This document shows, in pieces, positions 53,490 through 53,614 of a DNA stretch of 64,000 nucleotides. Position numbers and translations under genes: made by a program. The notes under the pieces were generated by a model. That model was not told the DNA's origin and searched no databases. It saw nothing but the letters and a program-made list of their open reading frames with translations. This stretch comes from Aquitalea aquatilis (lineage in GTDB: Bacteria > Pseudomonadota > Gammaproteobacteria > Burkholderiales > Chromobacteriaceae): NCBI RefSeq assembly GCF_005155025.1, contig NZ_CP039731.1, positions 248,001 through 312,000 on the forward strand, read 5' to 3'. Position 1 is the first letter of the stretch; each line of letters starts with the position of its first letter.

Positions 53490-53543
53490 ATGAACTCCCG
53501 CAACGCATTCGCATCCTTTACCTGGTGGTGGCGCCTCTTCTGA
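53490..53543 (+). CDS. trpS leader peptide with three tandem Trp codons
   Basis: The 17-codon frame encodes MNSRNAFASFTWWWRLF and ends with TGA. Three consecutive TGG codons (53523-53531) are followed at once by an alternative-hairpin region and a terminator, and then by trpS. This is the form of leader peptides in transcription attenuation: stalling at Trp codons when charged tRNA-Trp is scarce lets the downstream gene be transcribed. The binding site before the ATG is weak (GATAGAAAAC). Confidence 0.82.
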   Translation: MNSRNAFASFTWWWRLF

Positions 53544-53614
53544 GGTAGCACCGGCGACTGCGCACGCATACAACCCGGAGGCTGCCGACAAGGCGGATCC
53601 GGGTTTTGTTTTGT
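53544..53614 (+). promoter_or_regulatory. Tryptophan attenuator upstream of trpS
   Basis: The terminator stem is AACCCGGA (53572-53579) with TCCGGGTT (53598-53605), followed by TTGTTTTGT. An antiterminator can form between GGTAGC (53544-53549) and GCTGCC (53581-53586), which lies inside the terminator loop region and would block it. A first stem between the Trp codons (GGTGG) and GCACC near 53549 is also possible. Confidence 0.75.

What the first reader, a model, noticed from the sequence alone, without database searches (positions are those of the whole stretch)
53490..53614. trpS controlled by a Trp-codon leader peptide and attenuator
A 17-codon frame with three tandem TGG codons is followed by mutually exclusive stems (GGTAGC/GCTGCC against AACCCGGA/TCCGGGTT) and a T-rich tail, 58 bases before trpS. 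Leader attenuation is classical for trp biosynthesis operons; in Gram-negative bacteria it is not the usual control of a tRNA synthetase gene. Stalling at Trp codons would directly report charging of the very tRNA this enzyme makes.
Basis: partly seen in the sequence, partly recalled or inferred. Interest (0 to 1): 0.82.

Follow-up and report, generated by a model that had tools for sequence, protein, structure and literature searches.

The report
Tryptophan-sensing switch before a tRNA synthetase
A tiny gene with three tryptophan codons sits before the gene that loads tryptophan onto its tRNA and appears to work as a gauge that turns that gene on when loaded tRNA runs short; many related bacteria keep it, together with an extra RNA arm that can open or close the synthetase's own translation start.

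Summary
In detail: a 17-codon frame with UGG-UGG-UGG (53490-53543), an intrinsic terminator (53572-53614), then trpS (53672). The reading is supported and goes further. (1) The gene encodes a second, Deinococcus TrpRS II-like synthetase; 6 of 6 copies of the other trpS type that I checked have no such leader. (2) The Trp leader lies upstream of 60 of 64 orthologues in 101 genomes, 71 of 80 named loci, and 12 of 13 confident hits outside the order (the sets overlap in part). (3) The leader AUG lies 6-7 nt behind a -10 box in 120 of 131 cases, an SD-like tetramer in 1 of 131, so its mRNA is predicted leaderless. (4) Past the terminator, segment '5' can pair with the terminator's 5' arm ('3') or with the trpS ribosome-binding region ('6'). 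Both pairings co-vary across 24 lineages (0 of 20,000 permutations as good); pairings 2:5, 3:6 and 4:5 do not. Some lineages lack a U-tract but keep 3:5 and 5:6, suggesting attenuation coupled to translational gating. Precedents: Streptomyces trpS attenuators, a Caulobacter trpS leader CDS. A new variant of a known kind. Equilibrium folding did not show the gate's ON/OFF direction, which stays inferred; there are no expression data.

The parts
53453..53458 (+). -35 box TTGACG of the predicted leader promoter
   Evidence: TTGAC begins 36 or 37 nt before the leader ATG in 60 of 60 leaders of the first set (70 of 115 in all at 36-46 nt); 18-nt spacer in the window
53477..53482 (+). -10 box TGTGAT, 7 nt before the leader ATG; predicted start of transcription at or within a few bases of the A of ATG (leaderless mRNA)
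   Evidence: -10 end to ATG is 6 or 7 nt in 110 of 115 and 120 of 131 leaders (18% in base shuffles); SD-like tetramer in 0 of 115 and 1 of 131. No transcript data; the generic promoter scan did not list it
53490..53543 (+). Leader peptide ORF MNSRNAFASFTWWWRLF with stop; Trp codons 53523-53531
53523..53537 (+). Segment 1 (Trp codons and following CGCCTC), able to pair with segment 2
   Evidence: Sequence; fold; 1:2 swap test 39 of 20,000 permutations
53544..53554 (+). Segment 2 GGTAGCACCGG, antiterminator partner of segment 3
   Evidence: Sequence complementarity GGTAGC/GCTGCC; no co-variation support (swap test 4,132 of 20,000)
53572..53605 (+). Terminator hairpin 3:4
   Evidence: z -3.47, 0 of 200 shuffles; native pairing better than swapped in 24 lineages, 0 of 20,000
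53606..53614 (+). U-rich tail TTGTTTTGT of the terminator
   Evidence: at least 5 U in the 9 nt after the hairpin, as segmented by script, in 83 of 131 leaders
53577..53593 (+). Segment 3 GGAGGCTGCCGACAAGG: 5' arm and loop of the terminator, shared by pairings 2:3, 3:4 and 3:5
53625..53641 (+). Segment 5 CCTTGTCGATGGTTTCC: 16 of 17 positions pair with segment 3; with bases just upstream (GTTCC 53619-53623) the region can also pair with the trpS ribosome-binding site
   Evidence: 24 lineages: 3:5 native -22.9 against swapped -15.3 kcal/mol; 5:6 -14.9 against -10.9; 0 of 20,000 permutations each
53660..53674 (+). Segment 6: trpS ribosome-binding site GCGGAACACGAC and start codon
   Evidence: region more open in the enforced 3:5 state in 22 of 24 lineages
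53672..54694 (+). trpS, 340-aa tryptophanyl-tRNA synthetase of the TrpRS II type
   Evidence: TIGR00233, 240 bits, cut-off 176.75; Deinococcus TrpRS II 1yi8/2a4m 417-418 bits, next best 230

Best explanation
It is a ribosome-mediated attenuator that senses charged tRNA-Trp and controls an auxiliary TrpRS II gene, with a translational gate attached (the confidence given is for the attenuator; about 0.5 for the direction of the gate). Inferred sequence: RNA polymerase starts at or next to the A of the leader AUG and a ribosome starts on the leaderless 5' end. When Trp-tRNA is plentiful, the ribosome runs through UGG-UGG-UGG to the stop and covers segment 2; segment 3 pairs with 4 and transcription ends at 53606-53614. 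In transcripts that leak through, 3 is locked in the hairpin and the segment-5 region is free to close the trpS ribosome-binding site. When Trp-tRNA is scarce, the ribosome stalls on the Trp codons and covers segment 1; segment 2 holds 3 away from 4, polymerase reads on, and 3 is handed over to segment 5, leaving the ribosome-binding site open. Shown: the ORF, hairpin, conservation, promoter spacing, and co-variation of 3:4, 3:5 and 5:6. Inferred: leaderless start, stalling, termination, the hand-over from 2:3 to 3:5, and the direction of the gate.
For: Leader with Trp codons upstream of TrpRS II in 60 of 64 places in 101 genomes, 71 of 80 named loci (64 WW, 7 single-Trp; partly the same species), and 12 of 13 hits at E below 1e-100 outside the order. 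None of 6 genes of the other TrpRS type that I checked has a WW leader. Terminator co-varies. 3:5 and 5:6 each beat all 20,000 permutations in 24 lineages, while 2:5, 3:6 and 4:5 do not; the same in 22 lineages with cruder segmentation; 0 and 4 of 20,000 in 19 clades of the first set. With 3:5 enforced, the RBS region is more open than with 3:4+5:6 or 2:3+5:6 in 22 of 24 lineages (mean unpaired 0.56 against 0.37 and 0.38; exceptions L130, L203). -10 to AUG spacing 6-7 nt in 120 of 131. A putative small leader CDS on trpS mRNA was detected in Caulobacter (PMC4117421, passages).
Against: No expression data. Unconstrained equilibrium folding of read-through transcripts did not separate starved from replete states in the leaders covered. 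With pairings enforced, 3:5 has lower energy than 3:4+5:6 in only 10 of 24 lineages and than 2:3+5:6 in 15 of 24, so the gate needs co-transcriptional folding. In the window 3:5 is less stable than 3:4+5:6 (-36.4 against -43.6), and its best 5:6 pairing uses GUUCC outside segment 5 proper. The first, ungapped test of 3:5 against shuffles gave p 0.05 or less in only 26 of 60 leaders. 2:3, the antiterminator, has no co-variation support. Leader absent in 4 of 64 places and 9 of 80 named loci, and in 7 of 21 order loci read, so the gene does not always need it.
Confidence: 0.85

Rival explanations
1. Classical transcription attenuation only. Segments 5 and 6 form a constitutive weak RBS hairpin and 3:5 is a by-product that does not regulate. 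(This rival concerns the second layer only.)
For: Terminator with U-tail in the window and at least 5 U of 9 in 83 of 131 leaders; equilibrium folds with the terminator dominate in most of the 16 leaders whose structures were printed.
Against: 3:5 and 5:6 co-vary about as strongly as, or nearly as strongly as, the terminator (z -10.0 and -6.7 against -10.7) and are found where a U-tract is missing (L023-L027, L054; L203, L206, L209 among the cluster representatives).
Confidence: 0.25
2. Mainly translational attenuation: the 3:4 hairpin is a folding competitor and the terminator is an added feature of some lineages.
For: Outside the order, 7 of 12 leaders (L203-L207, L209, L212) fall short of 5 U in 9 after the hairpin and only L201 has a long U run, yet 3:5 and 5:6 are supported in the six representatives tested (41 and 66 of 20,000); the S. 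lividans trpS leader has two hairpins and no U-rich tail (PMC8079986, passages).
Against: The window and 83 of 131 leaders have a U-rich tail.
Confidence: 0.3
3. TrpRS II binds its own leader RNA and autoregulates, like ThrRS; the Trp ORF is incidental.
For: E. coli threonyl-tRNA synthetase regulates its own expression (mentioned in PMC2965389, passage).
Against: Tandem Trp codons are among the best kept features although surrounding sequence diverges; no tRNA-Trp anticodon-like CCA loop in the window's hairpin (reading). Not otherwise tested.
Confidence: 0.04
4. The terminated leader is a small RNA acting in trans or a functional peptide, as rnTrpL/peTrpL in Sinorhizobium.
For: S. meliloti trpL RNA starts with the AUG and acts in trans (PMC7298713, passages); the window's leader would give a similar short RNA.
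Against: Peptide conservation is concentrated around WW(R); no target was sought here. Does not exclude cis attenuation.
Confidence: 0.08
5. Chance ORF before an ordinary terminator of the upstream gene.
For: WWW frames occur at 0.1 per shuffled window and another is present at 52245.
Against: Same position, spacing and residues in the order, in other orders of the class and in the phylum outside the class.
Confidence: 0.01

Closest known systems
Streptomyces trpS attenuators (S. coelicolor auxiliary TrpRS, Vecchione and Sello 2010, seen only as a reference in PMC4787780; S. avermitilis trpS2 in PMC1262725; S. lividans trpL2 MMTRTCTQLWRAA in PMC8079986)
   Same: TrpRS gene preceded by a short Trp-codon leader and hairpins; S. 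lividans leader is transcribed leaderless; its W-R-A resembles the W-W-R-A of Burkholderia leaders here
   Different: Different phylum; one Trp codon in S. lividans; no RBS-gating segment described in the passages read; homology of the RNA not tested
Caulobacter crescentus trpS leader CDS (PMC4117421)
   Same: Gram-negative; a putative small leader CDS on the trpS mRNA found by ribosome profiling
   Different: No attenuator structure or second layer in the passages read; not compared by sequence here
E. coli pheST (pheM) attenuator
   Same: Leader attenuation of a synthetase operon in a Gram-negative bacterium (pheST named in PMC1262725)
   Different: Phe codons, pheST, no 3:5:6 gate known to me (recalled, not tested)
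Sinorhizobium meliloti trpL (PMC7298713)
   Same: Leaderless Trp leader mRNA starting at the AUG
   Different: Controls trpE(G), not trpS; acts also in trans

Membership tests
Ribosome-mediated (leader peptide) transcription attenuator | Short ORF rich in codons for the amino acid concerned, just before the structure | tested here: met
Ribosome-mediated (leader peptide) transcription attenuator | Intrinsic terminator between leader and gene | tested here: met
   Window; co-variation; U-rich tail in 83 of 131 leaders, so missing in others
Ribosome-mediated (leader peptide) transcription attenuator | Antiterminator 2:3 exclusive with the terminator and reachable only if the ribosome stalls early | tested here: inconclusive
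   Complementarity GGTAGC/GCTGCC present; no co-variation support (4,132 of 20,000 permutations)
Ribosome-mediated (leader peptide) transcription attenuator | Read-through rises when the charged tRNA is limiting | not testable with these tools
   Needs an experiment
Streptomyces-type attenuated auxiliary TrpRS | Second TrpRS besides another copy | tested here: met
   second TrpRS at G000:C1:2044723; but sole copy found in G016, G024, G029, G033
Streptomyces-type attenuated auxiliary TrpRS | Synthetase resistant to indolmycin | not testable with these tools
   Only similarity to Deinococcus TrpRS II shown
Streptomyces-type attenuated auxiliary TrpRS | Leaderless leader mRNA | tested here: inconclusive
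   Promoter spacing predicts it; no transcript 5' end data
RNA families catalogued in Rfam (Trp leader, T-box and others) | Match to a covariance model | tested here: not met
   0 matches at gathering score in the whole window; at E up to 10 in 53380-53700 only DnaX (minus strand, 19.4 bits, cut-off 35) and Parecho_CRE (11.8 bits, cut-off 55)

The most novel reading that the evidence does not exclude
A phylum-wide RNA device for TrpRS II: a leaderless Trp leader peptide drives a four-way exchange in which terminator arm 3 is a decoy of the trpS ribosome-binding region, so one segment (5) reads the state of the attenuator and opens or closes translation; the translational gate is the constant core and the transcription terminator is gained or lost between lineages. 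The Streptomyces and Caulobacter trpS leaders would be members of the same device.
Probability: 0.45. Interest if true: 0.75.

Novelty: new variant of a known kind. Interest (0 to 1): 0.6.

Why it matters
It would be a classical attenuator whose output is carried on to the ribosome-binding site by the same RNA strand, making two checkpoints from one sensor, and it offers natural lineages with and without a terminator to test which layer came first. It also marks TrpRS II as a probably starvation-inducible synthetase in many bacteria of the phylum, relevant to tryptophan limitation and to natural TrpRS inhibitors such as indolmycin.

Tried and rejected
Equilibrium folding of read-through transcripts in 'starved' and 'replete' states: no consistent difference in RBS access; the script stopped with an error at L062, so L062, L066 and L068 and the summary lines were not produced. 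First 3:5 helix search with ungapped helices: 26 of 60 had p 0.05 or less; many helices have a bulge or mismatch, and in a few leaders (e.g. L025, L054, L055) the script took another hairpin for the terminator. The gapped duplex swap test replaced it. RNAalifold on alignment A2 gave only 3 pairs; model R1 was essentially a sequence model. Pair counting on alignment A1: my bracket string was out of register for part of helix 1 and the MAFFT alignment misplaces segment 5 in several clades, so I draw nothing from it. Rfam: no family. Model R1 in 399 genomes of the order: 23 matches, one of which (L117, E 0.0045) I read as a chance match inside a coding frame. TrpRS-binding control was considered and given little weight.

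Rows dropped before counts: one search left out L131 (the same leader as L062), L138 (long insert) and L188 (start codon misassigned); one search left out these and L152, L183, L191, L194 (start codon misassigned), and did not reuse the loci L108-L116, some of which it held as other loci. Of the 63 genomes with a match at E up to 1e-60, I used the 13 outside the order with E below 1e-100 and the order's own; G654 (partial gene, E 3e-82) and 45 genomes with matches of about 40-42% identity were taken for another TrpRS type, and their upstream regions were not examined. In one search, 13 of the places listed got no locus there; 5 were already held as other loci and 8 were not examined. Places without a leader could not enter the structure tests. 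In one search the script took the 3:5 helix or another stretch for the hairpin in several lineages, and in at least one (L128); they were kept in the counts.

Papers: PMC1262725, PMC4117421, PMC2965389, PMC9437257, PMC7916415, PMC7298713 and PMC8079986 were seen as passages only, PMC4787780 as reference-list passages only; Vecchione and Sello 2010 and Kitabatake 2002 as references only. Ten paper searches in an open-licence library: nothing in the listings and passages that I saw describes this leader in beta- or gammaproteobacteria or a 3:5:6 gate. Listings were capped (15 of 545; 20 of 39; 25 of 82; 15 of 16), I opened only the papers named above, and subscription papers are not covered.

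Full report
WHAT IS THERE. The window lies at 248001-312000 of a single 4.36-Mb contig; its nearest named relatives are Aquitalea (L118, A. palustris, trpS protein 98% identical; L119, an Aquitalea MAG, 96%). The frame ATG 53490 - TGA 53543 encodes MNSRNAFASFTWWWRLF; the three UGG codons are 53523-53531. A hairpin, 53572-53605, with tail TTGTTTTGT follows; stretch 53560-53614 folds at -24.3 kcal/mol, lower than each of 200 shuffles. trpS runs 53672-54694.

WHICH trpS. The protein passes the NCBIfam trpS model (240 bits, cut-off 176.75). Among solved structures its closest are Deinococcus TrpRS II (1yi8, 2a4m; 417-418 bits), far ahead of the next (230 bits). The genome holds a second, longer TrpRS at G000:C1:2044723, which I take to be the housekeeping one. 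Six upstream regions of this second type, from six genomes, hold no short WW frame (0 of 6). In four genomes of one genus (G016, G024, G029, G033; 99% complete, three of them drafts) the leader-bearing gene is the only TrpRS found, and all four keep the leader (L057, L056, L054, L059).

CONSERVATION OF THE LEADER. In 101 genomes (the window's and 100 relatives), 64 places encode this TrpRS type (the cut is mine, at 59% identity and above, with a gap to about 48% below). 58 of 64 have a 13-22-codon frame with WWR ending about 100-150 bases before the trpS match, and two more have a single-Trp version: 60 of 64. The four without are L063, L064, L065, L067. One of the 9, L182, has a longer frame with YWRRS. 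Genera with a WW leader include Aquitalea, Chromobacterium, Vogesella, Pseudogulbenkiania, Silvimonas, Massilia, Cupriavidus, Paraburkholderia, Burkholderia, Janthinobacterium, Herbaspirillum and Duganella; the five Collimonas loci and two of three Undibacterium loci have none (the third, L165, has a single-Trp frame). In 300 evenly drawn genomes of the order 42 have this TrpRS type (E up to 1e-60). In 299 of the phylum, 13 genomes outside the order have it at E below 1e-100: 5 of the same class and 8 of the phylum outside the class. Upstream of those 13, 11 have a WW leader, one a single-Trp leader (L202) and one none (L213). Of 21 order loci read (L198-L200, L232-L249), 14 have a WW leader and 7 have none; L198, L246 and L247 of the 7 repeat places of the first set.

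A LEADERLESS LEADER (prediction). In all 60 leaders of the first set TTGAC begins 36 or 37 nt before the AUG; over 115 leaders the best -10 box (offsets 2-14 allowed) ends 6 or 7 nt before the AUG in 110, and none has an SD-like tetramer. In the enlarged set with offsets 0-20 allowed, 120 of 131 fall at 6-7 nt against 18% in base shuffles, with an SD-like tetramer in 1 of 131 (the scan breaks ties towards 6.5 in both). The generic promoter scan, with stricter hexamer rules, listed no promoter here. Since transcription normally starts about 7 nt after the -10 box (established knowledge), the predicted RNA begins at the AUG. Leaderless leaders are in print for S. meliloti trpL (PMC7298713) and S. 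lividans trpL1 and trpL2 (PMC8079986) (passages).

A FIFTH AND A SIXTH SEGMENT. Beyond the terminator the window has CCTTGTCGATGGTTTCC (53625-53641), which pairs with terminator arm and loop GGAGGCTGCCGACAAGG (53577-53593) at 16 of 17 positions. I tested such pairings by comparing each lineage's own segments with segments swapped between lineages. In 24 lineages (131 leaders clustered at 68%): 3:5 native -22.9, swapped -15.3 kcal/mol, z -10.0; 5:6 (ribosome-binding region) -14.9 against -10.9, z -6.7; terminator 3:4 -20.2 against -13.7, z -10.7; each 0 of 20,000 permutations. 1:2 gives 39 of 20,000; 2:3 gives 4,132. Pairings that should not occur show nothing: 2:5 4,864; 3:6 19,415; 4:5 19,803 of 20,000. 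The absence of an effect there argues against shared base composition as the cause. The six representatives from outside the order alone give 41 and 66 of 20,000 for 3:5 and 5:6. The sequences differ between groups: in Massilia segment 3 carries GCCUCGAU, the trpS start carries CUCGAUG, and segment 5 AUCGAGGC fits both; in Burkholderia (L147) segment 5 CAUGGCUGGCGGC fits GCCGCCAGCCAUG, and GGCUUCG can close on CGGAGCC of the ribosome-binding site (read by eye).

WHAT 3:5 WOULD DO. With 3:5 enforced, the ribosome-binding region is more open than with 3:4+5:6 or with 2:3+5:6 in 22 of 24 lineages (mean unpaired 0.56, 0.37, 0.38). Exceptions are L130 and L203. Energies do not decide: 3:5 is below 3:4+5:6 in 10 of 24 and below 2:3+5:6 in 15 of 24, and unconstrained folding of full transcripts did not separate starved from replete states. 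In the window itself 3:4+5:6 is favoured (-43.6 against -36.4) and its best 5:6 contact uses GUUCC 53619-53623, next to rather than inside segment 5. So any gate must work during transcription: in a replete cell 3:4 forms first and stays; in a starved cell 2:3 keeps 3 out of 3:4 until 5 appears, with the loop GACAAGG as a landing site. This step is inference.

TERMINATOR COMES AND GOES. At least 5 of 9 bases after the hairpin are U in 83 of 131 leaders (hairpins as chosen by script). A Chromobacterium clade (L023-L027) has GGGUUUCCAGCAG and no tract, and L054 and L055 also lack one, yet L023, L054 and L055 keep 3:5 duplexes of -26.1, -18.9 and -18.0 kcal/mol. Of 12 leaders from outside the order, 7 fall short of 5 U and only L201 has a long run. 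The S. lividans trpS leader is likewise described with two hairpins and no U-rich stretch (PMC8079986). This favours translational gating as the constant part.

KNOWN AND NEW. Known: attenuation of trp operons; Streptomyces trpS attenuators (PMC1262725, PMC8079986; Vecchione and Sello 2010 seen as a reference in PMC4787780); a putative small leader CDS on Caulobacter trpS mRNA by ribosome profiling (PMC4117421); pheST. Not met in the listings and passages that I saw from ten searches of an open-licence library (listed, with their caps, in Tried and rejected): this leader in beta- or gammaproteobacteria, its leaderless promoter, or the 3:5:6 arrangement. I therefore call it a new variant of a known kind. 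Confidence is high for Trp-leader attenuation, good for the reality of 3:5 and 5:6, and about even for the proposed direction of the gate.

Noticed in passing
52849-52891 and 54766-54808: Two copies of an intergenic repeat (CTCCTTGCCGTAC..TTTGTACTGTC.GCGTCGGCGCGCCTTG) flank the trpS region, both on the + strand; none in 100 shuffles.
   Followed up: partly
53114-53386: 90-aa ORF rich in glutamine between ppsR and the leader, no NCBIfam match.
   Followed up: no
54932-55621 and 55563-55955: Downstream of trpS: a CTP synthase C-terminal-related protein (PRK06186, over its cut-off) and an isochorismate lyase/chorismate mutase-like protein below its cut-offs.
   Followed up: no
52245 (+): Second short frame with WWW ([24 protein letters not shown]), inside the ppsR coding region; read as chance.
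   Followed up: no
L065 and L066 (genome G091): One genome carries two TrpRS II genes, one with the Trp leader (L066) and one without (L065); beside the latter lies a third TrpRS-like gene of 35% identity on the other strand.
   Followed up: no
L242 from about 1277 to 1500, and L249: 5:6 duplexes of -25.5 and -26.8 kcal/mol, far beyond the mean of -14.9: very strong predicted closure of the ribosome-binding site in these lineages.
   Followed up: no
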